DNA of 52,523 bases from contig WELB01000075.1 of the NCBI GenBank assembly GCA_009602725.1, positions 574,162-626,684 of the forward strand, read 5' to 3'. Each line of letters opens with the position of its first letter. Position 1 is the first letter of the stretch. Of this stretch, positions 4,096 through 52,523 are shown one piece after another. Under the pieces are notes generated by a model, which was given only the letters and a program-made list of their open reading frames with translations, did not search any database and had not been told where the DNA came from. The DNA is from Spirogloea muscicola (taxonomy: Eukaryota > Streptophyta > Zygnematophyceae > Spirogloeales > Spirogloeaceae). A program made the position numbers and the translations under genes.

Positions 4096-4252
4096 GTAAT
4101 TAGTAGCTGCTTCGTTTCTTCTTGTGTGCTTGTCTCTCTTAGTGCTTCACCTAAGTGCTTCGCTTGGCCCCCTTCTTGAACTGTGTTCATTCTTTTTCTT
4201 GGGCTGGCTGTTCCAGCCCATATCCTCAATGGGCGAGCCCTTTCATTCATAT
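4096..4252 (+). mobile_element. Family B 3' UTR and tail with hairpin
   Basis: After the B-family stop comes the B 3' UTR (TAGTGCTTCACC, GTTCATTC) and the hairpin GGGCTGGC-TGTT-CCAGCCC at 4201-4219. The end is CCTCAATGGGCGAGCCCTTT. The same order follows every other B-family 3' end in the window, for example after 20405 and 45870. Confidence 0.75.
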
Positions 4253-4639
4253 CTGCCGGGCTGGCCGACCAGCTCAGCCTCCCCGCGATTTCCCTGCGGG
4301 TCGGGCCGGGGTCATAAGACACTGGAGGGCAGGCAGCCCTTTGCTCTTCTCAACACCTTCAGGCCCTCCTAGTCCGGTCGCTCCCCAGTCGCCGCCGCCG
4401 CTGCCGCCGCCGCCGCTGCCGCCGCCGCCGCTGTCGCAACCGCCGCCGACGCCAAGGCCATGGCGGGCGCGGCTTTTCTGCAGAAAGGTGCTTCTACAGG
4501 TCTTTTTACAGACCAGGTGGCCTGCAACCCGGGACACGATGCAACTGCCTATCTTCCTGAGCAAGGGGAAAGAGTGGCTCTCCCGAAAGGGGCGAGTCCA
4601 AAGTCCTCGCCCCCTTTTGCCTCTCTCTCTCCTCTCTCT

Positions 4640-6206
4640 TGGCCGTGGCCTCCTTGCCCCCTTGCCCCTGCCGCCGGGGTGCCAGACTCCCCCAAGTGGC
4701 CTCACCATCCTAGGGGTCCCGTTCGGCACGCCGGCGTTCGTCGACGGGCACCTGCGCGTCCGCCTTCAGGAGCACCTCCAGCCGGTGGCCCGCCTCCCCG
4801 AGCTGCAGGACATGCAGCTGGCGCTCGCCATGCTCACCAGATGCATTGTGCAGCGTCCTCACTACCTGGCGCGGACGACCCCTCCCTGCCCCGAGGTGCT
4901 GGATGCCTACACCACGTTCGACGCGGGTGTCATGGAGGGCGTGGCGGCCCTCATCCGCCACCCTGGCTTCCGTGATTCGCCAGCTGCGACGCTCCAGGCC
5001 ACTCTGCCCCCTGGACAGGGCGGCCTCGGCTGCCGCTCGCTCGCGCGCGTCTCCAGGCCAGCATTCCTTGGCAGTTGGGCTCAGGTCGCCACATCGGTGG
5101 CGCAGCGCTTCCTCCATGATGGGCGGCCCCTGTTGCAGCAGGTTGTGGAGGAGGTGGTGACTGGCTCATTGCCTTTTCAGGAGGCGCTCCGCTTAGCCCA
5201 AGACGGGTTACTTGCGGAGCATCCTGCCCTTGCAGAGAGCGTGGTCCCGTTTGCCCACCTTGCCCACACCACCGACTCGCAGGCGCAGGCGCGCTACATG
5301 GCGGCTGTCGACACGGCGTCGTTCACGGCCTCGCTGCAGCTCCTCCCGGCCAGCGACGTGCGCGGCCGTGCGCGGCTGCTATCGGCCGCCTCCCCCGGCG
5401 CGGCAGCCTGGCTCTCCGCGCTTCCGTGGTATGATGCCCTCAGGCTGCCTGATGAGCTGTTCCGCACAGCCACCCATTGCCTGCTGGACCTTCCCCCGCC
5501 CTGCCTGCTGGGCGTGCTGCAGTGCCAGTGTGGGGAGCGGTCGACGGACCCGGCGGAGCTGGCGGCGCACATCCTCCGCTGCGCCACTGGAGGTGAACGT
5601 ACAGCGGCTCACGATCTTCTGCGTGATGCCATGTTCGGCATCTTCCAGGAGGCCGGCTACACGGTCGCAATGGAGAACACATCTGTTATGCCCATCCTCC
5701 AGAGGGCTGACGGACCCCATACGCGCCGTGTCGACCTGGTGGCGTCCACGCCGGGTGGTGGCGCGCGCATCATCGCCGACGTGGTCACCACCGATGTGGT
5801 CTACCGCTCCAACCCGGGGCTCTCTGCCTTGCGGGCTGGCCACGCGGCCACGAAGGCCGCTCGCAGCAAGGCGGCCAAGCACTCCGACCACCCACCTGCT
5901 GATGAGTTCGTCCCCTTGGCTGTGGACGTACACGGGGCTCTCGGGTCCCAGTGGCTTGACCTGCTGGCCAGGCTTGCACGGCGGGCTGTGTCCCGTAGGC
6001 GCGGCGAGCCGGCTGACTTCAATGCCGCTGGCTCCTGGGCCCAGGTCTACCGTATGAGACTGTCTGTATCCCTTCAGCGGTCCATGGCCCACGCTCTGCA
6101 TCTGCGTGCTGGCCGTGCTCTCGCTGCGGCCTCTGGCTTTCGTCAGGGGGATAGTTTTCCGGCAGCTAGTCTGTCGGATCTGAGGCTCCTCACTCGTAAC
6201 TACTGA
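4640..6206 (+). mobile_element. Family A LINE, RT thumb to C-terminus (open frame)
   Basis: This is the longest uninterrupted coding piece, about 520 codons without a frameshift. It starts after the RT catalytic motifs, at PPGCQTPPSGLTILGVPFG, matching the RT C-terminal end in the D copy (20672-22565). Order: RT thumb and linker (LAMLTRCIVQRPHYL), zinc knuckle CQCGERSTDPAELAAHILRC (C-x-C-x14-H-x3-C), nuclease region with RRVDLVAS, ARIIADVVTTD and ADEFVPLAVDVHG, and basic C-terminus ending SLSDLRLLTRNY-stop. The zinc knuckle plus PD-(D/E)XK arrangement recalls RLE-type non-LTR elements (R2, NeSL, CRE, Dualen groups). The frame runs on upstream through Pro-rich sequence from 4155, which I regard as accidental. 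RT core is absent. Confidence 0.8.
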
Positions 6207-6364
6207 GTGATCCATCCTCCCCCTGCTCTACCATAGCATCTTCAGACCCCATTGTAGCTGCTCAATGCTTCTTCGGCCCCTTTAAATCTTTGTCGATTCC
6301 ATTTTGGGCTGGCTTTTTGCAGCCCTTGCCCCCATTGGGACTGCCACTTCTTCTTCTTCTTCTT
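6207..6364 (+). mobile_element. Family A 3' UTR and tail ending in (TTC)n
   Basis: The A-family 3' UTR follows the stop and contains a hairpin GGGCTGGC-TTTTT-GCAGCCC at about 6306-6325. The conserved CCCCCATTGGGA block comes next, and the tail ends in TTCTTCTTCTTCTTC. The run of TTC takes the place of the poly(A) expected in many LINEs. Confidence 0.75.
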
Positions 6365-6399
6365 TTGGTTTTGTGCATAGCTGTGCGGTTTAGGCGCCG

Positions 6400-6764
6400 T
6401 TCGGCTCTTTGGACCTTGTCCATTCTTCTTGGGCTGGCCTTCCACAGCCACTACTTTAAAAATTTGAAGAGCTGTTCTTCTTTGCCCTCTTTGCGAGTGC
6501 CACTTTCTTTCTTTCTGTGAAAGCGAGCCCGAAAAACATCACAAGGTCCGAGGGGGCCAAGAATAAGAAAGTGGCTCTCTGGGAGAGCCTTTTTCTCCAA
6601 AGGGGGCTAGGGCTCAGAGAAAAATGAGCTCTTCCAGCGGGGGCGGGGACTGTCAAAATCCAGCCCAGACAGAATGGACAAGGTCCAGAGGGCCGGACGG
6701 CGCTAAAAGGGATCCAGAGACCGACAAGAGTGCACAGATCATCCAGCAACATAATTTGGCCAAC
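6400..6764. mobile_element. Array of orphan retrotransposon tails
   Basis: Tail hairpins without coding sequence lie on both strands. GGGCTGGCCTTCCACAGCC at 6431 is on plus. ACTGTCAAAATCCAGCCC with ACAGAATGGACAAGGTCC at about 6648-6690 is on minus. Intervening sequence resembles pieces of the same 3' UTRs (GGCCCTTTGGACCTTGTCC-like). No gene was recognised. Confidence 0.55.
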
Positions 6765-7510
6765 GAAGAGGAGTGGCTCTCCGAGGGGTGCAAGGGCTGC
6801 GAACAGCCAGCCCAGATTGTACAATGACTGAAGGGCCAAAAGCGCTGTCTCAGAGCTTGCCTGGTAGAATGAATCACTCAGTAACCACGATTGAGGAGCC
6901 ACAAATCCGAAAGACTAGCAGTCGGAAAGCAATCCCCCTGACGAAAGCCAGAGGTTGCAGCCAGAGCACGGCCAGCGGGCAGGTGCAAGGCGTGGGCCAT
7001 GGACCGCTGGAAGAAGATGGAGAGGCGCATTCGATAGACCTGAGCTAGCGAGCCAGCAGCATTAAAGTCAGCGCGGGATACAGCGCGTCGGGGAAGCCGG
7101 GCCAACAGGTCGAGCCACTGGGACCCGAAAGCCCCGCGCACATCGAGGGCCAGGGGTACGGAATCGTCTCCTGCGGGTGGTCTGTGTACATTCGCTTTCC
7201 TGCGAGCGGCATACGCCGCAGCATGGCCAGCCCTCGAGGCAGAAAGTCCCGGATTGGAACGGTCCACCACATCTCTGGTGACAACGTCGGCGACAACGCG
7301 CGGGCCGTTGCCCGGCATGGTGGCCACCAGGTCGACCCGAGATTTATGAAGTCCATCTGCCTTCTGCAGGATAGGCATGATGGACGTATTCCGAGCGCCA
7401 CAGTGTACCCAGCCTCCAGGTACATGCCAAACACGGCATCCCTGAGGACTCATGGGCAGCAGTGCGCTCGGAATACGTCCAGTTGCGCAGGAAAGGGTCC
7501 AGGAGCCCGT
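6765..7510 (-). mobile_element. Family A LINE fragment with its tail
   Basis: On minus, coding starts near 7510 in the zinc-knuckle region (ERTAAHE). After one frameshift near 7400 it continues as ARNTSIMPILQKADG, VDLVAT and VVADVVTRDVVDRSNPG, then ends SLSDLWLLNRGY-stop at 6878. The A-type tail with its hairpin (CTGGCTGTTCGCAGCCC) follows at 6765-6877. The 5' side is truncated and joined to the tail of a C-family copy at about 7545. The frameshift and a short deletion before ADFNAAG show it is dead. Confidence 0.75.
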
Positions 7511-7544: not shown

Positions 7545-7832
7545 GTGCTCGCCCATAGAGAAGGGGGGGCTAGCAAAGCCAGCCCAGAAAGAATGGACAA
7601 AGTCCAAAGCCAAATAGCGAAGAAACGCACAACTAGGCATCTAGACAAGAAGAGACGACGAAACCACAGGAAGCTCAATACCCGCGGGTGAGCAACATCA
7701 GGTCAGAGTAGCTCGAAGCTGGAAAAGAAGCATCCAGACGCGACCCAGAAGCAGCCGCGATAGCGCGGCCTGCACGCGAGTGGACGGCATGAGCGAGGGA
7801 GCGCTGGAGGGACACGGAGAGCCGCATCCGGA
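7545..7832 (-). mobile_element. Family C LINE 3' end and tail
   Basis: The minus strand encodes the last 50 or so residues of family C (MRLSVSLQRSLAHAVHSRAG) to the stop at 7675-7677. The C 3' UTR follows, and the tail hairpin GGGCTGGC-TTT-GCTAGCCC lies at about 7567-7585, next to CTATGGGCGAGCACTTT. Its 5' truncation point abuts another C-type tail at 7838, so the two units sit head to tail. Confidence 0.7.
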
Positions 7833-7837: not shown

Positions 7838-9517
7838 GAAAGTGCTCGCCCCTAGAGAAGAGGGGCTGGCAAAGCCAGCCCAAAAAGGATGGACAATGTC
7901 CAAAGCCAAAGAAAGAGGCGCCGAAAAGGACTACTTTACCAAACACGACATCACACTAGGGAAGCTCAGTACCCGCGAGTGAGCAACAGCAGGTCAGAGT
8001 AGCTCAATGCAGGGAAGGAGACACTCCGCCGAGACCCGGAGGCGGCGGCCAGAGCCGAAGGTCCCGTGCACATCAATCGCCAGGGCCGCGAATTGATCAC
8101 CAACCGGGTGGTCGGCATACTTCCGCTCCTTCCCCCGGGCCGCCTGGCCGACCGCGTGCCCTGCAAACGACGCCGATCTGGTGGGATTGGCGGAGTCGAA
8201 GCAGTCAGTCGTCACCACGTCGGCGATGATGCGGGGACCGCCGCCGGGCGGGATACCTGGGCCAGGGAGCCGGCCGCATTGAAGCCGGGCAGCCCCCCGG
8301 GCAGACCCGGCCGCCGCTCTATGGCCTGCCGGGCAAGCCGCTGTAGGAGATCCAGCCAGCCGCTGCCATAAGCCCCGTGGACATCGATGGCAAGGGCCGC
8401 GAATTCGTCGCCGTGCGGGGTGGTCTGCATATTTTCGCTCCTTGCCTCGGGCCGCCAGAGCGACCGCATGCCCAGCGGTTGACGCCGATTTGGAGGGGTT
8501 AGCGGAGTCGGCACAGTCGGCGGTCACCACATCCGCGATGATACGCGGACCGCCGCCGGGCGGGATGGCGACTAGGTCAGCGCGCCGGGTGTGGATCTGA
8601 CCATCGGCGTCGCGCACGATGGGCATTATCGATGTGTGCTCCACGGCCACCTCAGTAGCCTGCCTCGATGAAAACACCCTGCATGCCGTCCCTGAGAAGG
8701 TCATGGGATCCGGTCCTCTTGCCGCCGTGGGCACAACGGAGCATGTGGGCCGCCAGCGCCGCAGGGTCGGCGTGGCGGGCACCGCACTCGCATTGCATGA
8801 CTCCGACGAGGCAGGGGGGAGGAGGCCCAGCAACCGGTGGACCGCCGTCCTGTAGACTGCGTCAGGCATGGTGAGAGCCGCGTAGATGGGGAGCGCGGAT
8901 ACCCACGCCGCCGCCCCGAGGGAAGAGGCTGAGAGGAGCCGGGCGCGCCCCCGAATGTCGTGCAGCGGAAAAGAGAAAGCGGCTGCTGATATGAAAGAAT
9001 CGGCTGTGAAATGCCAGCCAGATGCATACAGGTGTTCATGACGGAGCCAAAGGCTAGGCAGCGGAAGGAGCTCCAACACCCGGTCATAGGCCGCTTTGTC
9101 CACAAGCGCAGTGCAGCGAGCCTGGGCCCGCAGGTTGGGGGTGTGTGCGAGGTGGATGAACGGAACAACCTGCTTCGACATGTCGGGGTGGGCCGCCAGG
9201 AGCCCGTCACGGGCAGCGCGGAGAGCAGCCTGGAAGGGCAGCGAGCCGCTCTCCACTTCAGCCACCACCCGCTCCATCCAAGGTGCGGATGCCGTGAGCT
9301 TGGAACCGCTGGCTGATGGGTGCGGCGACCTATGCCCAGCTGCCCAGATAGGCGGCCTCGCAGGCGCGGGCGACTGGCGGCAGCCCAGACCGCCGCGACT
9401 AACAGGCAGGCTGGCCTGGAGCAGCGCGGCTGGCGTGGTGAGGAAGCCGGGGTGCTGGCGGAGAGTGGCAGCGCTCGCCAGGATGCCAGAGTCGAACTCC
9501 GCGTACGCCGCCTTCAC
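7838..9517 (-). mobile_element. Family C LINE, rearranged, linker to C-terminus
   Basis: The minus strand holds about 500 open codons from KAAYAEFDSGILASAATLRQ (linker after RT) to the end. It carries the linker, a frame-disturbed zinc knuckle, and nuclease core blocks RRADLVAIPPGGGPRIIADV and KERKYADHP. The segment from GGGPRIIADVVT to KERKYADHPV is present twice (about 8370-8570 and 8060-8250), showing an internal duplication or a join of two copies. An 87-bp family G tail with a 9-bp target duplication is inserted at 8971-9057. The C-type tail lies at 7838-7965. Confidence 0.75.
8962..9066 (-). mobile_element. Family G tail micro-insertion with 9-bp TSD
   Basis: The 87 bp at 8971-9057 match the sequence just after the family G stop codon (9540-9625), including GGCTGGC-ATTTCA-CAGCC. 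They are flanked by GCAGCGGAA at 8962-8970 and 9058-9066. Removing one repeat and the insert restores the family C/A protein alignment (LLPLP then DIRGRARLL). Insert plus repeat is 96 bp, so the host frame is kept. Confidence 0.85.
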
Positions 9518-9539: not shown

Positions 9540-9960
9540 AATAGCGGCTGCTGATAATGAAAGAATCGGCTGTGAAATGCCAGCCAGATGCATACAGGTG
9601 TTCATGACGGAGCCAAAGGCTAGGCAGACAGGGCGCCCTCAAACCCCCGTGTCAGCAGTAGGAAATCAGATGAGCTGAGGGGAGGAAGAGCAACCCCGCT
9701 GCGCAAGCCAGAGGCTGCTGCAAGGGCGCGACCAGCGCGGCGGTGCAAAGCAAGCGCTTGGGAGCGCTGCAGGGACATAGACAATCGCATACGGTAGCAG
9801 GACATCAGACCCAAAGGCACCGAGCCACCGGGAAGGGCAGCACCCTGCTCCCGGCGCCGCTGGTCAGCTTGAGAGGCCAGCAGCGAAAGTAACGAGGACC
9901 ACCGACCCCCGTAACACCCATGGATGTCCATGGCCAGGGGGTAAAAGGTATCATCCGAAG
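9540..9960 (-). mobile_element. Family G LINE 3' end and tail
   Basis: The minus strand encodes about 110 residues from DDTFYPLAMDIHGCYGG through MRLSMSLQRSQALALHRRAG to SSSDFLLLTRGFEGALSA-stop at 9620. That C-terminus extends past the usual TRGY end. The tail at 9540-9619 has the hairpin GGCTGGC-ATTTCA-CAGCC and ends CAGCCGC followed by a T/C-rich run. The 5' truncation point joins a B-type tail. Confidence 0.75.
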
Positions 9961-9961: not shown

Positions 9962-10335
9962 AGAAAGAGCTCGCCCATTGAGGATAGGGGCTGGAACAGC
10001 CAGCCCAAAAAGAATGGACAAAGTACGAGAAGGGAGCCAGGGGAAGCGCTAAGAAAAACAAGCACAAGAAGAAACAAACAGCTACGAATGACTCAGTAAT
10101 TCCTGCTGAGCAGCCGCAAATCAGAGATGCTAGGGTCCTGGAAGTGGGTCCCCTGGACAGAGCCAGAGGCAGCAGCTAGGGCTCTTCCGGCACGAAGGTG
10201 CAGCGCACGGGCCATGGACCTCTGCAGCGAGACGGCCAAGCGCATGCGAGGGAGGACGCAGGCCAAGTAGTGCGGACGCTGGGCAATGCACCTGGTCAGC
10301 ATCGCCGTCGCCAGCCGCATGTCTTGCAGCGTGTG
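9962..10335 (-). mobile_element. Family B LINE copy with large internal deletion
   Basis: On minus, an RT-linker piece (MRLATAMLTRCIAQRPHYLA) is joined within a few residues to the C-terminal piece (MRLAVSLQRSMARALHLRAG ... SISDLRLLSRNY-stop at 10093). About 350 residues that lie between them in family A are missing. The B-type tail follows at 9962-10092. The join falls at similar MRLA words in the two pieces, which suggests template switching or homology-aided deletion. Confidence 0.7.
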
Positions 10336-10394: not shown

Positions 10395-10695
10395 AGCGCG
10401 GCCGAATTGACTGGTAGCTGGGAGAAGCCAGCCCAAAAGGAATGGACAAGGTCAAGAGGAGCCGAATGGCGCAGAAAGCAGGGGACTAAGTGCTAAAGAC
10501 GACAAGGAGGCTCTCAGGAACCTCTAGTCAGCAAGTGCAGGTCAGAATAGCTAGAGGGCAGGAAGACGTCGCCCTGACGAACCCCGGAGGCAGCCGCCAG
10601 GGCGCGGCCTGCACGTAGGTGGACGGCAAACGCAAGAGAGCGCTGGAGGGAAACGGCAAGGCGCATCCTGAACACCTGTGCGAGAGAAGAAGTGG
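10395..10695 (-). mobile_element. Family F LINE 3' end and tail
   Basis: On minus, about 60 codons (SLAQVFRMRLAVSLQRSLAF ... SSYSDLHLLTRGS-stop at 10514) are followed by the F-type tail with GGGCTGGCTTCTCCCAGC and a CAGTCAATTCGGCCGCGC end. Upstream, the truncation point abuts an A-type tail (hairpin, CCCCCATTGGGAGTACCAC). Confidence 0.75.
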
Positions 10696-11310
10696 TACTC
10701 CCAATGGGGGCAAGGGCTGCGAAAAGCCAGCCCAAAAGAATTGACAAAGGTTCGAAGGGGCCTAAGAGCGTTGAGCAGCTACAAGGGGCCTGAGGATGCG
10801 ATGGGAAAAACAGGGGGTGGATGGATCACTCAGTAATTACGAGTGAGGAGCCTCAGATCCGACAGACTAGCTGCCGGGAAGCTATTACCCTGACGAAAGC
10901 CAGAGGCCGCAGCAAGAGCACGGCCAGCACGCAGATGCAGAGCGTGGGCCATGGACCGCTGGATGGACACTGACAATCTCATCCGGTATACCTGAGCCCA
11001 CGAGCCAGCTGCATTAAAGTCAGCCGGTTCGCCGCGCCGACGGGATACAGCACCCGTGCGAGGTGCGAGGGACCCGGCGACGTTGAAGCCAGGCTGCTCG
11101 CCGTGCTGCCCGTGGCGGCGGGCCACCGCACGGCGAGCAAGGCAGTGGAGAAGGTCGAGCCATTTGGTCCCGAAGGCCCCGTGCACGTCGACGGCGAGTG
11201 GGACTAACTCGTCGCCTACGGGGTGGTCCGCGTATTTGCGGTCCTTTGCGCCCGCCGCCTGACGGACTGCGTAGCCCGCGTCCTCGGAGGAACGCTTCGC
11301 GCTGCCGGAA
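10696..11310 (-). mobile_element. Chimeric LINE fragment: family F joined to family A
   Basis: The minus strand reads SSEDAGYAVRQAAGAKDRKY, then the F-like QPGFNVAGSLAPRTG, and then jumps back to the A-like SRRRGEPADFNAAGSWAQVY. It ends SLSDLRLLTRNY-stop at 10830, followed by an A-type tail (10696-10829). The GFN(V/A)AGS(L/W)A block appears twice, once in each family's version. The copy is therefore a mosaic of two families in one frame, truncated at the 5' end. Confidence 0.75.
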
Positions 11311-11324: not shown

Positions 11325-12250
11325 GAATTTTCGTGTAATTGAAACAAACGAAGGCCAAATGGCCAAGTACAAAGGCAAGCACATCTAAGACCTACATAAC
11401 CTACAGCAGAATGACCCGCTCAGTAACCGCGGGTCAAAACATAAAGGTCGCTAATCGATGCCTGAATACTAGATGTCGGATGAGAAGCCCTTCTGCCACC
11501 AACTCGAGCTCGCCCAGCTTTCTGGTGCAAGGCATTAGCCTGGGCACGCTGCAGACAGGCCGAAACTCGTCGTCGCAAGAAAGACAGATATGCAGCTCGC
11601 AAGCACATCTCAGCCGGGAACACATCTGCACGTCGTGTGAAGCCTAGATTGGCAATGTTGTGGAGGAGGGTGTGGAAACGCGGACCCAGACAGCCAAAGG
11701 TGTCAACTGCAGCTGGCAGGAGCTGATCGCACCGGGGGTAGTCGGAGTAGTGCTGTAGCTTTCTCTGCTCTGCAATGCCCACTGCGTGGCCAGCGATTTG
11801 TGTCGATGCTGGACCTTTGTACGCCTCCGTAACAACCACGTCGACCAGGGCCCGAGGTCCTCCACCAGGTTGCACGCCCACAATGTCAAGTGTGCGGCGA
11901 TGATGACGTCCCTGGGCGTCCGTGGTAATTGGCATAATATTGTTGACTTCTACGACCGCTCGGTAGCCGGCGTCGCGCATCAAGCCCGCCAGGGCATCGC
12001 GGAGGAGGTTGTGGATGCCCACCACTTCTGGTGGGCATCTTAGCATGTGAGCGGCGAGCTCAGCACCCTCTGCACGGAAGCCACACTCGCACTGGCGCAC
12101 CCCAATCAGGCAATTACGTGGGAGGCCGAGGAAGAGTTGCAGCGACGTCCGAAAGGCCTCGGAGCTGATGCTGAAGGCATTGGCGACGGCGTGTGAGGTG
12201 ATCCATTCCGTGGCACCAGGTGTGGCTAGAGAAGTAAGTCTTGCCAGGCA
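11325..12250 (-). mobile_element. Family E LINE, zinc knuckle to C-terminus
   Basis: On minus, an open frame of about 275 retroelement codons carries SHAVANAFSISSEAFRTSLQ, the zinc knuckle CECGFRAEGAELAAHMLRC, and a nuclease region with HRRTLDIVG, PRALVDVVVTE, RKLQHYSDYPRCDQLLPAAV and DTFGCLGP. It ends SISDLYVLTRGY-stop at 11420. The E-type tail (11325-11419) is unlike the others: it lacks the GGGCTGG hairpin and carries GGCCATTTGGCC and a TCAAATACACG-like end. The fragment is intact within its limits and is the best E-family reference here. Confidence 0.8.
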
Positions 12251-13439: not shown

Positions 13440-13860
13440 ACCTTTGTCAATTCTTTTTGGGCTGGCTTTTTGCAGCCCTTGCCCCCATTGTGAGTGCCAC
13501 TTCTCTTCTGGCATCTCTCTAGCTCTGGCCAGGGGATCCGCTACCTGGAGACTAATTTCTCTGACCTGCGGCTGCTCAGCAGGGGTTTACTGGAGGCCTC
13601 GTGGCCACTTGAGTGCGCCCTCTAGCTATTCCGACCTCCATTTACTCCATTTAAATCCGACCTGGCTCCGGCAGACCGTGTCCATTCCTTTTGAGCTGGC
13701 CTTTCCCAGTCCCGACCCTCTGTGGGTTTTCTTTCTTCTGTGGGCGAGCACTTTCTTCTTTCTTCTTTGGGCTGGCCTCTCACAGCCCCAGTCAATTTGG
13801 CAGCGCTGTTGATGTTTCATTCACTCACTAGAGGTTACTGAGAGCCTACTTGCTGACGTC
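13440..13860 (+). mobile_element. Orphan tails and very short LINE ends
   Basis: An A-type tail is at 13455-13500. A B-family terminus (SDLRLLSRG-like) is at about 13555-13590, and an F-family SYSDLH start is at 13615-13645. C- and F-type tails follow (GGGCTGGCCTCTCACAGCCC, GTCAATTTGGCAGCGC). Each coding piece is 10-25 codons or shorter. Confidence 0.55.
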
Positions 13861-14420: not shown

Positions 14421-15009
14421 TAAATTGAGGGCGATGGCTGTGAGTGGCCAGCCCAGAAAAATGAGTGAACAAATTTCGAAGGGGTCAGAGAAAAAAAGTA
14501 GAAAGCGTTCATTCTTTTTGTGTTCTTTTGTTCTCCTGGGCTGGCCACTCACAGCCATCGCCCTCACTGGAAGCGTCTCTTTCTGGCATCTCTCTTCGTC
14601 GCTGCTAAGCGCTTTAGGGCCCTCTTTTCCGGCACCTCTTTCTTTGGCTTTGGACATTGTCCATTCTTTATGGGCTGGCTTTGCCAGCCCTCTTCTTTAT
14701 GGTCACTTTCTTTAGGCCCCTCCGTCATTTGGCCCCTTCGAACCTTTGTCAATTCTTTTCGGGCTGGCTTTTTCACATCTCTGATCTGCGGCTGCTTTCC
14801 AGCCCCTATCCTCAATGGGCGAGCCCTTTCTTCTTTTTCACAGCCCTTGCCCTCATTGGGAGTGCCACTTCTTCTCCCTTCCGGCCCTTCGTCTCTACGG
14901 GCGAGCACCAGAAAGAGCTCAAGCCTTGCTCACGCTTCACCGGGAGGTCTTACCAAAAAAAGGGAGCGAGGGCTGTGCAAGCGAGAAAGAATGAACAAGC
15001 CCAGGCAGA
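14421..15009. mobile_element. Dense array of orphan tails on both strands
   Basis: At least five tail hairpins occur in under 600 bp: minus CTGTGAGTGGCCAGCCC near 14440, plus GGGCTGGCCACTCACAGCC near 14540, plus GGGCTGGC-TTTG-CCAGCCC near 14670, plus GGGCTGGCTTTTTCACA near 14760, and B- and A-type ends near 14805-14870. The first two are near-perfect reverse complements about 100 bp apart, so an RNA from this region would fold back. No coding sequence is attached. Confidence 0.6.
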
Positions 15010-19599: not shown

Positions 19600-19830
19600 G
19601 GGGCAGCTGTGCCGGCCGCGCTATGGCTGCTGCCTCAGGGTCTCGCCGGAAGTGCTTCTTCTCCTTCGGCGAGTTACTCAGGCTTGATGTTGCTCACTCG
19701 CGGGTACTGAGCTTCCACATGCATCGTCTCGTGTCTAGTTGTGTGGTTTTTCTTATCGGCACCATTTTTGGCTTTTGATCCTGTCCATCCTTTTTGGGCT
19801 GGCTTGGCCAGCCCCTCTTCTTGCCAGCCC
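19600..19830 (+). mobile_element. Family C-like LINE 3' end and tail
   Basis: Across two frames the plus strand gives GRAMAAASGSRRK and then SYSGLMLLTRGY-stop near 19710. The C-type tail follows, with GGGCTGGC-TTG-GCCAGCCC at 19795-19815 and CTATGGGCGAGCACTTCT near 19838. The GC-rich stretch 19300-19600 before it is unassigned. Confidence 0.6.
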
Positions 19831-20114: not shown

Positions 20115-20550
20115 TTCTTCTCCGGTGGACTTCCCTGCAGCCTGGTCGCTGGCGCAAGTGTACCGAATGCGCCTGGCCGTCTCGCTGCAGAGGTCGATGG
20201 CCCGTGCGCTGCACCTTCGTGCCGGCAGAAGGAAGAAAGGCCAGATTGACTGGTGGCTGGGAAAGTCCAGCCCAAAGGAATGGACAAGGTCTGAAGGAGC
20301 CGGAGTGCAAGGGCAGAGCCCTCGCTGCTGCCTCTGGCTCTGGCCAGGGGACCCACTTCCAGGAGCCTAGCATCTCTGATCTGCGGCTGCTTAGCAGGGG
20401 TTACTGAGTGACTCTTAGCTGCTTTGTTTCTTTTTGTGCTCGTATTTCTTAGCGCTTCCCCTGGCCCCCTTCTCGAACTTTGTTCATTCTTTTTTGGGCT
20501 GCTTTTTCCAGCCCATATCCTCAATGGGCGAGCACTTTCTTCTCTAAGGG
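20115..20550 (+). mobile_element. Family B LINE 3' end interrupted by a tail insertion
   Basis: On plus the B-family C-terminus (FPAAWSLAQVYRMRLAVSLQ, ARALHLRAG) is interrupted at 20229-20311 and resumes as RALAAASGSGQGTHFQEPSI through SDLRLLSRGY-stop at 20405. The B-type tail follows to about 20550 with hairpin GGGCTGC-TTTTT-CCAGCCC. The break is explained by an 83-bp F-type tail inserted in reverse. Confidence 0.8.
20224..20316 (-). mobile_element. F-type tail micro-insertion with 5-bp TSD
   Basis: An 83-bp block at 20229-20311 matches, on minus, the F-type tail (GACCTTGTCCATTCCTTTGG, CCAGTCAATCTGGCC, T/C-rich end). It is flanked by GGCAG at 20224-20228 and 20312-20316. Deleting the block and one repeat restores the B-family reading HLRAGRALAAASG. 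Confidence 0.8.
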
Positions 20551-20554: not shown

Positions 20555-22565
20555 CCATTCTCTTAGCTCAAGCAGAGAGAAGGCGCGCGGTGCGCATGAA
20601 ATTGAAAGGGAGGCCAATTCTAGCCTTACAAATGTCTTGTAAATTGGGTAATGAGCTGGCTAAGGGGGACGCTAATATCCCCGAGTAAGCACATGCATAT
20701 CTGACAAGCTATACTGAGGAGCCGAACCACCTCCACGGAAGCCATTAGCCTGGGCTAATGCACGACCAGCACGCTGGTGAATCGCGAGTGCTTGGGAGCG
20801 CTGCAGACTCAATGATAGTCTCATCCTATAACATGCAACGATGGCTTGCAGGACGCTAGAATGGCCTAAGCTACCCGCCCGACTACGTCGGCGGGCATAA
20901 ACATGCAGTGCCAGGCGATGGAGGAGGGCAGACCACTTCGTTCCATAGCCGCCGTAGATGTCCATGGCGCATGGGAAGAAGTGGTCGCCCCGGGGGTGGT
21001 CGTTATAGTGTCTCTCCTTCTTCCTCTCCGCACGATGCGTCACCCAACCTGGCACAGTCGGTGTGGGTGCCCCTGATTGGAAGGCGTCGATGAGGACGAC
21101 GTCGAGGAGAAGACGAGGCCCACCACTCCGGGGGGTGGCCACCACATCCAGACGCCTGACGTAAGGCCTGCCACGCTTCTGGAGTACCGGCATGATGCCC
21201 GGCACCTCCATGGCCGCATGATAACCTGCCTCGCGCACCAAGCCATACTTTGCGTCTCTGAGAAGATTGTGAGAGGCATTACGTTCACTTCCCTCGACAC
21301 ATTGAGGCATGTGAGCTGCCAAGGAGATCTCATCCTCCGAACGATGGCCACATTCACACTGTCGAATGCCCGCCAAACAAAGTGGAGGGAAGCCGAGATG
21401 GTGGTGGACAGCCGTCCGGAAGAGGTCGTCGGAGAGCCGGAGGGATTCATAGATCGGCAAAGCGTTCAGCCACTCCGACGCCCCCGGAGAGCTGATGGAG
21501 TGGAGACGAGAGAGCCCACGCCCATCCTCCTTGAGCAGAGTTTGGAGCTGGCTCATTGGCTGCGCGTGAAAAACGAGCTTGAGCCTTCAGGTCAGAGCAT
21601 CTTGCCCACGCCGCAAAATCGACCTGATCTGCCGCAAGTGATGGGAAGGAGCGGAGAAGGTCTCTGCGAACGTCAGAGAGGGAGGATTGAAAGGGCAGGG
21701 TCCCATTTGCCACTCCAGCTATTGCTGGTGCCAGTACTGGCTGACCCCTCCTGATGAAGCGCGTTGAGACTGTGGAGGCCACTTGCGCCCAACACCCCAG
21801 GTGTGCCGTGCGAGCTAGGTAAGCCATTGGGCGGCAGCCAAGGCCGCCCTTGCCTACAGGGAGCGTCATTTGGAGGAGGGCGGACAGGCGATGTAGGGAG
21901 TGCCGGGTGATCCAGCAGGTCGAGCAGAGCCTGTTGGAGGCTGCCATCCGCGGCGGCATATACGTTGTCCAAAGCGGTAGTGGGAGGAACTGCCCGCTGC
22001 AGGTAGGTGGGGCGCTGGGCCACGCACCGGGTTAGGATAGCAACAGCCAGCTGGGAGTCATGCAAAGTGGGGAGGGCTGGGAGAGTCTTTAACTGTCGCT
22101 CGATAGTGGCCTGCACCTCCTGTACCACATGAGCTGCCTCGCCCAGAGGGACACCAAGCACCACCATGCCTAGGGGGGGGGTCTGGCACCCTACTGGAAG
22201 CTGAAGGGTGGGAGGGATGCCGACTGGCGACCATGCCGTACATTTGTCGGGGCGGACTGTGAGGCCGAGAGAGTGTAGCTCACGTTCCAAGGTGCTGAAG
22301 GCTCGGGTGACATCTGCAGGGGGGCCCACCAAAGTTGTGTCGTCTGCATAGCTAGGCAGAAGTACCTCTGGGTGGGCCGCCGCCGTGGTGCGCAGCGCAC
22401 GTAAATGAGCCAAAGCAAAAAGGAAGCCGCCGAGAGGGTCGCCCTGTCGGGTGCCTGTGTATGATGTTAGGACAACCCGCGAGGTGCCCGCTCCCCATAG
22501 TAAACTAGATGAAGCACCATACATGCATCGAAAGAACCCTAAGCAACAAGAAGAAAGCGCTCTTG
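20555..22565 (-). mobile_element. Family D LINE with RT catalytic motif (most complete copy)
   Basis: The longest element, about 1.9 kb on minus. It opens inside RT (FFRCMYGASSSLLWGAG), with TGTRQGDPLGGFLFALA and SYADDTTLVG (YADD at about 22339-22350). RT thumb (CQTPPLGMVVLGVPLGEA) and linker follow, then a frameshift near 21900-21960 and another near 21500. Next come the zinc knuckle CECGHRSEDEISLAAHMPQC, the nuclease region (VRRLDVVA, PRLLLDVVLID, RHYNDHPRGDHFFPCAMDIY) and YSLSDMHVLTRGY-stop at 20672. The D-type tail is at about 20560-20671. RT motif A and everything upstream are missing, so it is 5'-truncated and frameshifted, but it shows that RT and nuclease sit in one polyprotein in this order. 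Confidence 0.85.
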
Positions 22566-22569
22566 CAGT

Positions 22570-22800
22570 GCAAGGCAATGGCTGTGAGAAGAAGTGGCTC
22601 TCCCAATGGGGGCAAGGGCTGCGAAAGCTAGCCCGAAAAGAATTAACGGTCCGAAGGGGCCAAATGACGGAGGGGCCTAAAGCGCTATGTCAGAACGGGC
22701 TGTGAGAGGCCAGCCCAAAACAAAAAAAGCAATGACTAACGGAGTGAGGAGCAGCTCTGCGGAAGAAAAAGGCTATCCTGAGGTGTGTAGTAAGAGGTGA
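22570..22800. mobile_element. Orphan A-type tails
   Basis: Minus-strand A-type tail pieces (GCCACTTCTTC with CCCCCATTGGGAGAGCC, then AGCCCTTGCCC) lie at about 22590-22640. Another hairpin half (GGGCTGGCCTCTCACAGCCC) lies near 22700. No coding sequence was seen. Confidence 0.55.
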
Positions 22801-43534: not shown

Positions 43535-43740
43535 CTAGAAGAAAGGGCTCGCCCATAGAGAAGAGGGTCTGGCAAAGCCAGCCCAAAAAGAATGGACAAT
43601 GTCCAAAGCCAAAGAAAGAGATGCCGAAGAAGGACTACACTACCAAACACAACAACACACTAGGGAAGCTCAATACCCACGAGTGAGCAACAGCAGGTCA
43701 GAATAGCTCGATGCGGGGAAGGAGGCCATTTGGCCTTCGT
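43535..43740 (-). mobile_element. Family C-like end and tail inserted in an E tail
   Basis: On minus, a short C-like terminus (SYSDLLLLTRGY-like, near 43670-43725) with its 3' UTR and C-type tail lies inside an E-type tail: GTGCTTGCCTACGTAC precedes it and GGCCATTTGGCCTTCG resumes at about 43725. Confidence 0.65.
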
Positions 43741-44245: not shown

Positions 44246-44720
44246 TCGCTCTCCTGGAAGCGTCCTTCTTCGTCGAACTTTGCTCATTCTTTTTGGGCTA
44301 ACCTTTCCTCTATGAAGAAGAAGAACTGCTCGCCCATAGAGAAGAGGGGCTGGCAAAGCCAGCCCTAAAAAGAGCCTAGCATCTCTGATCTGCGGCTGCT
44401 TAGCAGGGGTTACTGAGTGATTCGTAGCTGGTTTGTTTCTTGGTGTGCTTGTTTTCTTAGCGCTTTTCCTGGCCTCCTTCTCGTACTTTGAACATTCCTT
44501 TTTGGGCTGGCTTTTCCAGCCCCTATCCTCAATGGGCGAGCCCTTTCTTCTTAAAAAGAATGGACAATGTACAAAGCCAAAGAAAGAGGAGCCGGGAAAA
44601 GGACTACACTACAAAACACTGCACAACAAGTTGACGATGTAGAGGGAAGCTCATTGAGCAACCCACGAGTGAGCAACATCAGGTCTGAGTAGCTCGCTGC
44701 AGGGAAAGAGGCACTCCAAT
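44246..44720. mobile_element. B terminus, C terminus and tails
   Basis: A C-type tail on minus at 44330-44365 carries the perfect hairpin GGGCTGGCAAAGCCAGCCC. On plus, a B-family end (SISDLRLLSRGY-stop at about 44415) has its B tail to about 44550. On minus, a C-like end with 3' UTR follows at about 44555-44715. Confidence 0.6.
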
Positions 44721-45302: not shown

Positions 45303-47880
45303 TAGAGGAGTTTATGCAGGCAGACACATCTGATACAAGAATGTAAGCACTGGTTCCTGGCCACCTGCTGCAGGATGAGCACCTTGGTGTATAAGCTTGC
45401 TGACCTCCGCCTTTGTCGTCTCCTCGTAATATTTGCTCGTTGCTCGGTGTTGTAGAATGTGGTGTTTTCAGCTCCATGAATCTCCCCAATGGGCAGCACG
45501 TGATGGACGCTACGTTCACTGTTAGCTTGGTCCCAAGATGAGGAGTATTGACCTCGTACACCGTGCTTCGCTGACGATCTCACCGTGGGCCGCACTCGCA
45601 GTTGTGGGGGCACAGGTCACGGCTTGGCGATTGTCAAAGGGCTGGTGTCGCTCATGGCTGGCAAGGTGGACATCATTGACAAGCTAGAACACGGCACTCT
45701 CGTTCGAGTGGAATTACACCTCAGCTTACCTCCCAAGCCCACCGCATCCAATCTCGGGGCGGAAGTGGCCGACACGCCCCAGTCCCCTCCCGACTGGAGC
45801 GTGTCGGGAGGGGACCCACTTCCAGGAGCCCAGCATCTCTGATCTGCGGCTGCTTAGCAGGGGTTACTGAGTGTCTCGTAGCAGCTTTGTTTCTGTTACT
45901 TAGCGCTTCCCCTGGCCCCCTTCTCGTACTCTGTTCATTCTTTTTCGGGCTGGTTGTTCCAGCCCCTATTCTCAATGGGCGAGCACTTTCTTCCCGAGCG
46001 CTTGCGTGGCTGCTCGGTGCTGCTGGTGATGCCCAAGACGCCGAGCAGGGACATCTTGACGAGGTTGCTGGAGGCGCAGCAGCTCCGGGTCGAGCACGTC
46101 GGGGCGTGGAGCGATGCCCACACCGCTTGGACCGCGCTCGTGGACCGTGTACGCCCTGCGGCCATTGATGCCTCGCCCACAGAGCACGCCATGCCGGGGC
46201 TCGCGCGAGCCGTGTCCCCGGGCAAGAGGCTCGAAGACGGGCAACCAATGGCTCCGCCGCTGGCATCTCCTGGCACTGAGACGAGCCCCGTGCAGGAGGC
46301 GGGCACGCCGAAGAAGGGGGCAAGGAAGCCATTGATTGTGGTTGTCATGGACGAGCAGCGGAGGAGAAGGTGGTGCCCGATGTTGGAGAGGCCGACCTGG
46401 ATCTTAGAGATGGCATGAGCAAGGAGGTCCTCCACCAAAGTACTGCTGGCGAGCAGGGTGTCCATGCCGAGACAGGATACACAAGGGAAGGTGGAATGGA
46501 CATGTGTGTCCAGGCAGCAGAGGGTGACCCTGGCGCTCTGCAAGGAGGCGGTGGCCTTGAAGCTGGGCCGCAGCATTGTCAAGAGAGCCTGCCGAGGGCG
46601 GTGGCTTCAACATCCGAGCAGCCTATTGTGTCATCATCGGTGCACCGCCCCTCTGCTGCCAAGCCTGGTGCATCTTCAGAAGCCAGGTTGGATGGCTTCA
46701 GGATTCTTGTGGTAGAGGTAAGTCCCACTTGGCCTCCTCCTCCTCAGGTGGGAGCATCATAAGTACAATTGGTGCAATGTAACAGGTAGGGGACACCACA
46801 CAGTGTTTGCTCTTGTTTGAATGTGATGAGAGTCTGAATGTGGAGACACGAACCCTGTCCTGGCAGGACACGAAGACCGCGCAGATACTGGCAGTCAGAA
46901 TGCTTGAGATCCAGGGTGTGCATGTTGTGGCTGTGAACAATGGGCAAGAGGCAGTGGATGCGGTCAAGGAGGCTGTAGCCAGGCATAGGAAGCAGGTAAA
47001 CAGAACAAGGCTAAATGCTTACAATGGCTTCTTACTGTTCCTTGTGCTTTCCTGTGCGCTTGAGTACCCTGTCCGTCCCTCCTTAATAGAAAGTCAATGG
47101 TCGGCTGGCCCACTACTGCTCTCAATTACAACATCATGCACCCTTGCATCTGTGAATTGCAAGGCTGCCCATGACTGGAGGCAGATGGTCCTTCTGGAAG
47201 GCCTACCGCAAGTCGTATGCATGTACTGTGGCTGGCTGATTCTGACCAAGAAACCTTCTTCCTGACCTAGGGTATTCTTGAGGATCCTTTTAACTCACGC
47301 ACCCTTCCGGCCTTGAATAGCGAAACCTTTAAGGACTACCCATTCCACGGCATCCTGATGGACTGTCAGATGCCAGTCATGGATGGCTACGAAGCTGCCA
47401 AGACAATCAGGGACATGGAACACGGCACCGGGAGGCGCGTTGCAATTGTAGCTTGCACTGCAAATGCCATGATGAGTGCAAAGGAGAAGAGCTTGCAGGC
47501 GGGCATGGATGCACACTTTACAAAACCCCTGCGAGTCAATCTGCTGGTCTCAAAATTTCGAGGTGGGTGATGCCGGAGCCTGACTCGCCTTTGATGAAAG
47601 CTTGCCAGCAATACGTTGCGCTTACTTGACCCAAGCTTGGTTGTACATAGCTGTCTGCACTACCTGCCGGAGCTAGTCAGAGCATAGCTGATTAGTCTCA
47701 TCGTACACCAGAGATGGAGATTACTATAAAGCTAGTGCCTGAAAATGAGCTATACTGGAGGTGAAGCATAACTGATTGAGGCCTTTACTTGTGTTACTGT
47801 TACGAGCAGATTTGGTGCTAAAGGAGCACAAAAATCGTCCTCTGGATTTGACGGAACATGTCCAGGGTACCGCAAGCTGA
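45303..47880 (+). pseudogene. Duplicated 3' half of the histidine kinase gene
   Basis: This copies 34290-36959 with the same introns. Exon pieces: about 45303-45342 (EEFMQADTSDTRM), 45602-46717, 46867-46995, 47271-47562, 47810-47880 (ending VQGTAS-stop, as VQDTAS in the source). The ATP-lid motif reads GGTGHGLAIV against GGTGLGLGIV. A 199-bp B-family insertion splits the large exon at 45794-45992. The C-terminal part of the pseudo-receiver is deleted near 46355, and a frameshift leads to a stop at 46416. The true receiver (ILMDCQMPVMDGYEAAKTIR; FTKPL) stays open and well conserved, so the duplication is not very old or this exon was kept. The kinase 5' half is absent; the left edge is an E-type tail. 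Confidence 0.88.
45789..45997 (+). mobile_element. Family B 3' end inserted in the kinase copy, 5-bp TSD
   Basis: CCCGA at 45789-45793 and 45993-45997 flanks 199 bp: 15 bp of filler, the last 20 codons of family B (DPLPGAQHL in one frame, SDLRLLSRGY in the family frame), the B 3' UTR, and the hairpin tail GGGCTGGTTGTTCCAGCCCC ending CTTTCTT. The source kinase gene shows the empty site at about 34787-34800. Confidence 0.9.
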
Positions 47881-50754: not shown

Positions 50755-51190
50755 GCTTCCAGATGATGGCGGTGGTTGTGAGAGGCCAGCCCAGAAGAGT
50801 GAATAAAGTTCGAAGGGGCCAGAGAAAGCTCTAAAGCATACATTGAATCAAGTAGCAGCCAGCCAGGTGCATACAGAGGGTATTCGTGACTACATCAGCG
50901 GAGCCACAGGCTTGGCAGACAGGGCGCTCTTAGTAGGAGACCAGCTTGCAGCTCTTCCAAATTGACAGCAGTGGCTGAGAGAGAAAAGAGGTGGCTCAAA
51001 GAAGAAAGTGCTCGCCCATAGAGAAGAGGAGCTGGCAACGCCAGCCCAAAAAGAATGGACAATGTCCAAAGCCAACGAAAAAGGACTACACTATAAAGCA
51101 CATTCAAAGCACAAGACGATGAGGAGGGAAGCTCAGTAGCCACGAGTGAGCAATATCAGGTCAGAATAGCTCGCTGCAGGGGAAGAAGCA
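50755..51190 (-). mobile_element. Orphan tails, family G end and C-like end
   Basis: On minus: a C-like terminus (SELF(Y)SDLILLTRGY-like, about 51130-51190) with its 3' UTR and C-type tail (51010-51125), a family G tail-like block at about 50865-50935 (CGCCCTGTCTGCCAAGCCTG), and another tail at about 50760-50830. Confidence 0.6.
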
Positions 51191-51199
51191 CTCCCTGTC

Positions 51200-51620: not shown

Positions 51621-51639
51621 GAGAAGAAAGCGCGGCCAG

Positions 51640-51960
51640 ATTGACTGGTGGCTGGGAAAGGAAGAAAGAGCTCGCCCATTGAGGATAGGGGCTGGAACAG
51701 CCAGCCCAAAAAAAGAATGGACAAAGTACGAGAAGGGAGCCAGGGGAAGCGCTAAGAAGAACAAGCACAAGAAGAAACAAAGCAGCTACGAATGACTCAG
51801 TAATTCCTGCTGAGCAGCCGCAGATCAGAAAGAAAGAGCGCGCCCATAGAGAAAAGAAGAAGAGCAAAGCCAGCCCAGAAAGAATGGACAATGTCAAAAG
51901 CCAAAAAACACAAAAACAAAGAACACACAGCTAGGCAGCTAGAGAAGAAGACACGACGAA
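51640..51960 (-). mobile_element. B terminus and tails of types F, B and C
   Basis: On minus, from right to left: a C-type tail (51840-51960), a B-family end (SDLRLLSRNY-stop near 51795-51835), a B 3' UTR and tail with hairpin (51665-51790), then an F-type tail end. All point the same way. Confidence 0.65.
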
Positions 51961-51965
51961 ATCAC

Positions 51966-52250
51966 AGGAAGCTCAATACCCCCGGGTGAGCAACATCAGG
52001 TCGGAGTAGCTCGACGCAGGAAAAGATGCATCCAGACTCGACCCAGAAGCAGCCGCGATAGCGCGGCCCGCACGCGAGTGGACGGCATAGGCGAGGGAGC
52101 GTTGGAGGGACACGGAGAGCCGCATCCGGAAGACCTGGGCCAGGAAGCCGGCCGCGTTGAAGCCGGGCAGCCCCCCTGGCAGACCCGGCCGCCGCTCGAT
52201 GGCCTGCCGGGCAAGCCGCTGGAGGAGGTCCAGCCAGCCACGGCTATAGA
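51966..52250 (-). mobile_element. Family C LINE 3' end
   Basis: On minus, GWLDLLQRLARQAIERRPGL, FNAAGFLAQVFRMRLSVSLQ and HSRAGRAIAAASGSSLDASF lead to SYSDLMLLTRGY-stop at about 51973. The 5' truncation point directly abuts an A-type tail. Confidence 0.75.
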
Positions 52251-52254
52251 TAGA

Positions 52255-52523
52255 AGTGGCACTCCCAATGGGGGCAAGGGCTGCGAAAAGCCAGCCCAAA
52301 AAGAATTTACAAAGGTTCAGAGGGGCCTAAGAGCGGTGAGCAGCTACAAAGGGGCCTGAGGATGCAATGGTAAAACAGGGGGAGGATGGATCACTCAATA
52401 AGTACGAGTGAGGAGCCTCAGATCCGACAGACTAGCTGCCGGGAAGCTATCACCCTGACGAAAGCCATAGGCCCCGTGGACATCGATGGCCAGGGCTGCG
52501 AATTCGTCGGCAGGCGGGTGATC
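52255..52523 (-). mobile_element. Family A terminus with tail, and start of another C copy
   Basis: An A-type tail (52260-52390) and A-family terminus (FRQGDSFPAASLSDLRLLTR, about 52395-52467) lie on minus. At 52468 the sequence switches to family C nuclease text (GGCCCCGTGGACATCGATGG) that runs out of the window. Confidence 0.65.

What the first reader, a model, noticed from the sequence alone, without database searches (positions are those of the whole stretch)
4200..52340. One hairpin tail shared by several otherwise distinct LINE families
Families A, B, C, F and G differ in the last 30 codons and in 3' UTR, but their copies end in a tail with the same core: a TCCATTCTTT-like box, GGGCTGGC-loop-GCCAGCCC, a family-specific 15-25 bp block, and a short TTC run (examples at 4201, 6306, 10430, 20498, 45953). 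Stem bases are often kept by matching changes on both sides. This resembles the 3' recognition hairpins of stringent LINEs that SINEs borrow. Shared use by many families in one genome would mean a common tail exchangeable between RTs.
Basis: partly seen in the sequence, partly recalled or inferred. Interest (0 to 1): 0.78.

Follow-up and report, generated by a model that had tools for sequence, protein, structure and literature searches.

The report
Exchangeable hairpin tails of LINE retrotransposons
Related jumping genes of one clade in this genome end in a short hairpin-bearing tail, and at least twice a family has taken over the tail of a distant relative and then kept copying itself, so nature has already run a tail-swap experiment that can now be studied.

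Summary
The window is full of 3' ends of one clade of R2-like, restriction-like-endonuclease (RLE) LINEs. Most lineages end in a box, a hairpin, a block and a TTC run. Genome-wide, 16,809 sites match GGGCTGGC-loop-CAGCCC, against 7 for the reversed pattern. The tail is the 3' terminus, lies on the coding strand, and its type follows the coding lineage (60 of 70 coding end-tail pairs in samples not chosen by tail).

Not supported: clear covariation. The core stem GGCTG/CAGCC is almost invariant; two lineages carry other hairpins in the same place. SINE borrowing was not shown.

Two recombinant families are found. Lineage-A coding (97-98% identical to a T2-tailed parent) ends in lineage E's T1 tail (97-99%) at 9 distinct loci. 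Lineage-D coding ends in a T1 tail (97 places, 20 examined; 17 of 17 scorable flanks differ). One locus (L106) carries both tails in a single insertion: T1 inside the 3' UTR, parental T2 after it. Best explanation: a 5'-truncated tail inserts into another LINE's 3' UTR and later copies start at the new tail. Whether the coding lineage's own RT or the tail donor's RT moves the recombinants is open.

The parts
3634..4092 (+). C-terminal coding end of a lineage-A LINE (..SLSDLRLLSRGY)
   Evidence: ORF list and tblastn to lineage ends
4201..4219 (+). T2 hairpin of the lineage-A LINE; box just upstream, block after it
4155..6203 (+). open frame whose later part is the RT-thumb to C-terminus of an RNY-lineage LINE (ends LRLLTRNY); the first part is not LINE coding
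5370..6203 (+). C-terminal zinc-knuckle plus restriction-like endonuclease region (low-confidence model matches R2 structures)
6306..6325 (+). T3 hairpin of the RNY-lineage LINE, followed by TTGCCCCCATTGGGA block and TTC run
7567..7585 (-). T1 hairpin of a lineage-E LINE (coding end at 7678)
7863..7881 (-). T1 hairpin of a lineage-E LINE (coding end at 7969)
9567..9586 (-). T7 hairpin of a C62-lineage LINE (coding end at 9641)
9988..10006 (-). T2 hairpin of a lineage-A LINE (coding end at 10096)
10415..10434 (-). T4 hairpin of a lineage-D LINE (coding end at 10517)
10714..10733 (-). T3 hairpin of an RNY-lineage LINE (coding end at 10833)
11353..11366 (-). T8 hairpin TTGGCCATTTGGCC of a G-lineage LINE
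11423..12136 (-). C-terminal coding part of a G-lineage LINE
13459..13478 (+). T3 hairpin
14672..14690 (+). T1 hairpin
19796..19814 (+). T1 hairpin
20496..20514 (+). T2 hairpin of a lineage-A LINE (coding end at 20404)
20598..20620 (-). T6 hairpin GAATTGGCCTCCCTTTCAATTTC of a B98-lineage LINE
20675..21586 (-). C-terminal coding part of a B98-lineage LINE
21676..22689 (-). open frame with the RT fragment of a LINE (RVT_1)
   Evidence: E 9.4e-9
26598..26617 (+). T4 hairpin of a lineage-D LINE (coding end at 26516)
28380..28399 (-). T5 hairpin of an A-like, degenerate lineage (H)
29228..29246 (-). T2 hairpin of a lineage-A LINE (coding end at 29338)
29628..29646 (-). T1 hairpin of a lineage-E LINE (coding end at 29735)
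43566..43584 (-). T1 hairpin of a lineage-E LINE (coding end at 43673)
44504..44522 (+). T2 hairpin of a lineage-A LINE (coding end at 44413)
45947..45965 (+). T2 hairpin of a lineage-A LINE (coding end at 45867)
51029..51047 (-). T1 hairpin of a lineage-E LINE (coding end at 51136)
51689..51707 (-). T2 hairpin (A-like coding end at 51800)
52278..52297 (-). T3 hairpin of an RNY-lineage LINE (coding end at 52398)

Best explanation
The shared tail is the 3'-terminal recognition and start signal for target-primed reverse transcription (TPRT) of a diverse clade of R2-like LINEs (N-terminal fingers, RT, C-terminal zinc knuckle and RLE). Each coding lineage normally keeps its own version: a box, a hairpin mostly with the core GGCTG..CAGCC, a lineage-specific block and a short TTC end. 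Many copies are cut off at the 5' side, some down to the tail. The tails are exchanged, rarely but more than once. A 5'-truncated tail of one lineage lands in the 3' UTR of another LINE and gives a double-tailed element. Copies made from its RNA that start at the upstream tail lose the old tail, and these recombinants then found new families. Shown: position, linkage, true 3' end, two propagated recombinants, one double-tailed insertion. Inferred: that the tail binds the RT, that TPRT starts there, and that nesting rather than template jumping is the route.
For: Clade: RVT_1 in the window and in a 5' half, L059 (above its cut-off; L060 and L061 just below theirs), with no APE match in the three. 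A low-confidence model of the window's own C-terminal region has its seven top Foldseek hits on R2 proteins, best E 5.9e-5. Tail at the terminus, on the coding strand, lineage-linked: (window 25 of 30; L039-058 18 of 22; L123-142 17 of 18).

Recombinant 1 (A coding, T1 tail): met as L053, picked by RT only. Coding 84-92% aa identical to T2-tailed L049 in all four quarters, 63-65% to T1-tailed L050. Junction 21-mer: 7 exact and 3 near places, control 0. 10 loci, of which L053 and L103 share flanks: 9 distinct. The A coding end is seen in 7 of the 9; two are cut within the UTR. Coding parent L132 keeps T2: L053 and L105 match it at 236/241 and 234/241. Tail parent L124 (E): 85-87 of 88 in five copies. 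T1 and T2 parents: 72/100. A-E third codon positions agree at 43%. Trees: recombinants join L132 in coding (97) but E's T1 in tail, with weak support inside T1; L132's tail sits in the T2 clade (97).

Recombinant 2 (D coding, T1 tail): junction 21-mer 35 exact, 97 within 2 mismatches (ten in one tandem array), control 0. Of 20 fetched, 18 have T1 as nearest tail and 15 the D stop context. In four of five copies compared, coding is 78-88% to five T4-tailed D elements and 67-71% to E; the fifth (L144) is interrupted. Distal UTR plus tail 82-91% to four E elements. 17 of 17 scorable flanks mutually unlike.

Double-tailed copy: L106 is one insertion (313-594 of 711 resembles held LINE sequence) with A end, T1, then 59/59 nt of the parental T2.
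Against: No RT-RNA binding or transposition data. At most weak stem covariation. The double-tailed form is one locus; it could be a recombinant copy placed by chance at the 5' edge of a solo T2 copy. No double-tailed D copy was seen among the 20 fetched. Unassigned bases at both junctions (about 4 and 11-13 nt) also fit template jumping. The D/T1 coding parent is not as close as that of A/T1, so that exchange is older or its nearest parent was not sampled.
Confidence: 0.78

Rival explanations
1. The odd coding-tail pairs are only nested insertions: a 5'-truncated E copy sits in the 3' UTR of an old A or D copy and was never copied on as a unit.
For: Nesting is common here; L097 (A end followed by a T1-like tail) has its exact junction only once; L051 and L054 carry plain nested insertions by my reading.
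Against: The A/T1 junction is found at 9 distinct loci with different 5' cuts and 3' flanks; the D/T1 junction has 97 places, 20 examined, with 17 of 17 scorable flanks unlike.
Confidence: 0.05
2. No exchange: T1 is the ancestral tail kept by E and by some A and D copies, while other A and D copies changed theirs.
For: T1, T2 and T3 are related; in the coding tree E, A and D are neighbours with weak branching order (52-62).
Against: L132, 97-98% identical in coding and identical to L106 over the first 35 nt of UTR, has T2; the recombinant tail is 97-99% identical to an E tail while A-E third positions agree at 43%. Similarity to E starts abruptly about 39 nt after the stop codon. For D/T1 the exclusion is less tight (coding 78-88% to D/T4, distal part 82-91% to E), but E-like UTR outside the tail is shared too.
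Confidence: 0.04
3. The recombinants arose by template jumping during TPRT: synthesis began on E RNA at T1 and the RT jumped to A or D RNA in its 3' UTR.
For: In vivo template jumps are reported for R2 (PMC3414825, passages seen); unassigned bases lie at the junctions.
Against: L106 carries T1 followed by the parental T2 in one insertion, as nesting predicts and a jump does not.
Confidence: 0.25
4. The hairpin tail is a separate small element or a preferred target sequence that LINEs land beside, not part of the LINE.
For: Some LINE 3' flanks lie in other LINE tails (L040, L041, L047), and short tail-only copies exist (44347-44365 -).
Against: Same strand, similar distance from the stop codon, tail type follows coding lineage, and copies diverge right after it.
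Confidence: 0.04

Closest known systems
Stringent-type LINEs ZfL2-1 / ZfL2-2 (PMC4176376; abstract and passages seen)
   Same: 3'-terminal stem-loop and short end repeat; related families with different stem-loops in one genome.
   Different: Zebrafish L2-type LINEs. There the loop sets specificity and stem-loop-swapped constructs did not move; here lineages with differing loops have swapped tails in nature and spread. Recognition is untested here.
Plant L1 lineage with a 3' hairpin and ZmSINE2/LINE1-1_ZM; Chlamydomonas RandI and SINEX pairs (Ohshima review PMC3747384; passages seen)
   Same: A 3'-end hairpin conserved across LINEs of green lineages.
   Different: Those are L1 or RandI/Dualen LINEs, with compensatory stem changes and SINE partners reported; here RLE LINEs without a found APE, a nearly invariant core stem and no SINE shown.
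R2/R1 hybrid SIDEs of Drosophila (PMC3414825; passages seen)
   Same: Elements joining part of one LINE to the 3' end of another; insertion follows the tail donor.
   Different: Non-autonomous, R2 ribozyme plus R1 3' end at the R1 site; here coding ends with a relative's tail, dispersed.
BLAG, non-site-specific R2-like LINEs of the cockroach (PMC7650587; passages seen)
   Same: R2-like LINEs without a fixed site; recombination between families described.
   Different: There the recombination described involves the zinc-finger part of the ORF; here the 3' UTR and tail.
Utopia / NeSL group (PMC4640811; passages seen)
   Same: One protein with 1-3 N-terminal fingers, RT, one finger and RLE at the C-terminus.
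   Different: U2 snRNA gene targeting (not tested here). The clade position of our elements was not resolved.

Membership tests
R2-like RLE-type LINE | non-LTR reverse transcriptase | tested here: met
   RVT_1 E 9.4e-9 in window:21676-22689, 3.9e-9 in L059; best PDB sequence match of L059 is an R2 protein, E 6.5e-7
R2-like RLE-type LINE | C-terminal zinc knuckle and RLE | tested here: met
   CxC..H..C and R-R-x-D..D positions in alignments A1, A2; fold model (mean pLDDT only 54.5) matches R2, 7 of 7 top hits, E 5.9e-5. A sequence profile alone gave nothing significant (best R2 E 0.62)
R2-like RLE-type LINE | N-terminal C2H2 zinc fingers, single ORF | tested here: inconclusive
   Cys/His patterns read by eye in L059-L061; Pfam only zf-met at E 0.063 in L059; start codon not determined
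R2-like RLE-type LINE | insertion at one fixed target (rDNA, U2, spliced leader) | tested here: not met
   A-lineage 3' flanks are diverse. It works like R2 in domain plan; it is not claimed to be R2 itself
Stringent-type LINE | conserved stem-loop at the LINE 3' terminus | tested here: met
Stringent-type LINE | RT requires or binds the tail | not testable with these tools
   no assay available
Stringent-type LINE | compensatory changes in the stem | tested here: inconclusive
   92.6% of cells paired against 91.2% in shuffles (29 of 500 as high); 3 cells with double changes against 1.1 (27 of 500); slid controls 0-3; T6 and T8 rows misaligned. Core nearly invariant
Stringent-type LINE | partner SINE with the same tail | not tested
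   only a tRNA scan and Rfam on the window, both empty
RandI/Dualen (APE plus RLE) | N-terminal APE endonuclease (definition recalled) | tested here: not met
   no APE match up to E 0.1 in the 844-887 aa 5' parts of three elements

The most novel reading that the evidence does not exclude
In this genome the RLE LINEs evolve as separable coding and tail modules. A common recognition core (box plus GGCTG hairpin) lets the RTs of several lineages start on each other's tails, so constant nesting of 5'-truncated tails works as a tail-exchange engine, and a successful tail such as T1 spreads across coding lineages (A and D so far, perhaps the A-like T5 lineage too).
Probability: 0.35. Interest if true: 0.8.

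Novelty: new variant of a known kind. Interest (0 to 1): 0.62.

Why it matters
How strictly a LINE reverse transcriptase knows its own RNA has been argued from cultured-cell constructs and from SINE-LINE pairs. Here one genome offers parents, recombinants and a double-tailed intermediate of natural tail swaps, in an R2-like group whose known relatives are being developed as gene-insertion tools. Comparing A/T2, A/T1, D/T4, D/T1 and E/T1 would tell directly whether the tail or the coding lineage decides what moves.

Tried and rejected
Pfam RVT_1 hits as a way to the LINEs: the 38 regions fetched from it were by my reading largely Ty3/gypsy-like LTR elements (integrase, chromodomain), and were dropped from all counts. 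Stem covariation: weak at best. An outer stem between box and block: strong folds in T1 and T2 (T1 -26.1 kcal/mol, z -4.0), but box-block pairing is not clearly better for matched than for shuffled lineages (fraction 0.44 for nine types, 0.14 for seven, 0.08 for four), so not claimed. A first anchor-based typing mixed T1, T2 and T3 and picked up unrelated sites; not used for counts. MAFFT misplaced T6 and T8, so their rows count as broken. L097 as a third recombinant: single exact junction, rejected. Lineage H (T5) as a third exchange: 12 of 43 matches fetched, decayed, left open. A comparison of distal tails included flank and was replaced. The 10 mispairs of 70, judged by reading: window: a G end followed by a nested T2, an RNY end interrupted before its hairpin, an E copy with a damaged T1, an A-like end probably misassigned to RNY, and lineage H; L039-058: the two recombinants (L053, L050) and two nested cases (L051, L054); L139: a weakly scored end probably of lineage D. 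Left out of that table because chosen by junction or tail: L102-L110 and L111-L122.

Full report
What was checked. The window is G000:C75:574162-626684 of an unnamed 153.1 Mb genome in 471 contigs. An AP2-domain match, barely over its cut-off, and an EPSP synthase exon in the window suggest a green-lineage alga; this is inference. They are three tail types, not five: T2 (three of them), T3 and T4. GGGCTGGCN{1,7}CAGCCC has 16,809 sites genome-wide against 7 for the pattern read backwards. The T1 core has 2,379 sites (2 mismatches) against 0; the T6 hairpin has 702 (1 mismatch) against 0.

What the elements are. Window copies are largely 5'-truncated LINE 3' ends, in both orientations and often nested. 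A 198-aa RT piece of the window finds relatives all over the genome (1,535 first-look candidates, 150 scored). Three 5' halves (L059-L061, 844-887 aa in frame) hold Cys/His patterns read by eye as C2H2 fingers, and RT (RVT_1 above its cut-off in L059, just below in the other two), and no APE match up to E 0.1. The C-terminal region has a CxC..H..C knuckle followed by conserved R-R-x-D and D positions. A model of window:5370-6203 is weak overall (mean pLDDT 54.5; 65 of 278 residues at 70-90), but its seven best Foldseek hits are all R2 proteins (best E 5.9e-5). A sequence profile alone did not reach significance. I therefore read the elements as R2-like RLE LINEs without a fixed target site; the exact clade is not settled.

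Lineages and tails. By their last codons the LINEs fall into coding lineages A (..DLRLLSRGY), RNY (..DLRLLTRNY), D (..DLHLLTRGY), E (..DLMLLTRGY), B75/B98 (..DLFVLTRGY..DMHVLTRGY), C61/C62 (..DFLLLTRGY) and G (..DLYVLTRGY). Their usual tails are T2, T3, T4, T1, T6, T7 and T8. T1, T2 and T3 share box, GGGCTG-class hairpin and an ATGGG/ATTGGG block; T4, T5 and T7 keep GGCTG..CAGCC with other blocks; T6 and T8 have other hairpins. In three samples not chosen by tail, the coding end sits beside its usual tail in 25 of 30 (window; 39 coding ends seen), 18 of 22 (L039-058; 25 seen) and 17 of 18 (L123-142; 20 seen) cases, 60 of 70 in all. In 40 loci chosen for a lineage-A C-terminus it is 33 of 34 (44 ends seen). 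Random window points have a tail within 330 nt in 127 of 1,000 cases and the antisense of the same stretches in 6 of 39. The lineage-A copies diverge right after the TTC run (33 of 40 loci could be lined up, on a string inside the block).

Structure. The minimum-free-energy fold has a hairpin at this place in all eight tail types tested, but only T1 (z -4.0) and T2 (z -2.4) stand well below shuffles. The claimed covariation is at most weak: core pairs are almost invariant, 3 cells have double changes, and 27-45 of 500 shuffles reach the observed double-change and covariation values. The box and block of T1 and T2 can pair into an outer stem, but matched lineages do not clearly pair better than mismatched ones. 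What is conserved is sequence, across lineages whose proteins are about 45-74% identical in the stretches compared and whose 3' UTRs otherwise hardly align.

Recombinant 1. L053, picked by its RT alone, has lineage-A coding sequence throughout (84-92% aa identity to L049 in each quarter, 63-65% to E element L050) but a T1 tail. The 21-mer across its UTR junction occurs 7 times exactly and 3 times with 1-2 mismatches, control 0. All nine further loci were fetched. L053 and L103 share their 3' flank; the other scorable flanks differ, and the 5' cut points differ, so there are 9 distinct loci. The lineage-A coding end is present in 7 of them; L102 and L104 begin within the UTR, and the tails of L104 and L110 are interrupted or damaged. 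L132, picked by RT alone, is the coding parent: L053 and L105 match it at 236/241 and 234/241 over the last 240 nt; the 35 nt after the stop codon are identical between L132 and L106; then L132 has T2. L124, an E element, is the tail parent: 85-87 of 88 tail positions in five copies. The T1 and T2 parents agree at 72 of 100. The coding tree puts the recombinants with L132 (support 97); the tail tree puts them with L124 within T1 (weak support there), while L132's tail lies in the T2 clade (97). The parental junction has 547 places within 2 mismatches, control 1, including a tandem array.

Recombinant 2. In L050 a second, lineage-D end is followed by an E-type UTR and T1. A 21-mer at its D-side junction occurs 35 times exactly and 97 times within 2 mismatches, control 0; ten of these lie in one 882-bp tandem array. 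Of the 97, 20 were fetched (18 exact, 2 with one mismatch): 18 have T1 as nearest tail, two are interrupted by other insertions, and 15 keep the D stop-codon context. In four of five copies compared, coding is 78-88% identical to five T4-tailed D elements and 67-71% to E element L133; the fifth (L144) is interrupted by another insert. The proximal 31 nt of UTR match 29/31 with L055 (T4) and with L135 (a D element whose tail is interrupted), and 23/32 with L131 and L056. The distal 102-104 columns are 82-91% identical to four E elements. All 17 scorable 3' flanks of the 20 loci differ.

How it came about. It runs from a truncated A end through the T1 junction and T1, and then 59 of 59 nt of the parental T2, with 35 nt of UTR missing between the two joins. 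This is what a T1 tail inserted in the 3' UTR of an A element would give when copied from the outer tail, while the other recombinants were copied from the inner one. The double-tailed junction is unique in the genome at 2 mismatches, so this rests on one locus. Template jumping remains possible.

Relation to print. In zebrafish ZfL2 elements stem-loop-swapped constructs did not move, and the loop was the specific part (PMC4176376, abstract and passages). In Drosophila, R2/R1 hybrids use the machinery of their 3' end (PMC3414825, passages). Recombination within R2-like LINE ORFs is reported in cockroach (PMC7650587, passages). Shared 3' hairpins with compensatory changes are reported for a plant L1 lineage (PMC3747384, passages; its source paper was not held). 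Searches of the held open-access library listed no paper that I recognised, from titles and abstract starts, as reporting propagated tail exchange between LINE lineages; most subscription papers are not in that library.

Verdict. The tail is real, terminal and lineage-linked. The interpretation as a recognition hairpin is likely but unproven. Covariation is weak at best. Exchange between lineages is shown by two propagated recombinants.

Noticed in passing
G000:C81:238052-240219: LINE 3' UTR sequence repeated every 179 bp: a satellite-like array made from a LINE 3' end.
   Followed up: no
G000:C353:50097-58055: Ten copies of the D/T1 junction at exact 882-bp spacing, a tandem array containing a recombinant LINE end.
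   Followed up: no
window 34523-38657 and 45522-49588: Two copies of a gene region (histidine-kinase-like ATPase and CCCH zinc-finger frames in the first) at 68-74% identity: an old local duplication.
   Followed up: partly
L040, L041, L047; window 29338-28850 (-): LINEs often sit inside other LINE tails or 3' ORFs in the same orientation, at pyrimidine/TTC tracts; a possible target preference, not quantified.
   Followed up: partly
L111-L122; window 28399-28380 (-): Lineage H has an A-like coding end and proximal UTR but a T5 hairpin and block; possibly a third, older tail change.
   Followed up: partly
L001-L038: The best RVT_1 matches of the genome look largely like Ty3/gypsy LTR elements with integrase and chromodomain-like ends, several with identical RT scores.
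   Followed up: no
window 29151-29037 (-): A lineage-E copy ends abruptly in the middle of its T1 hairpin, as if reverse transcription had started inside the stem.
   Followed up: no
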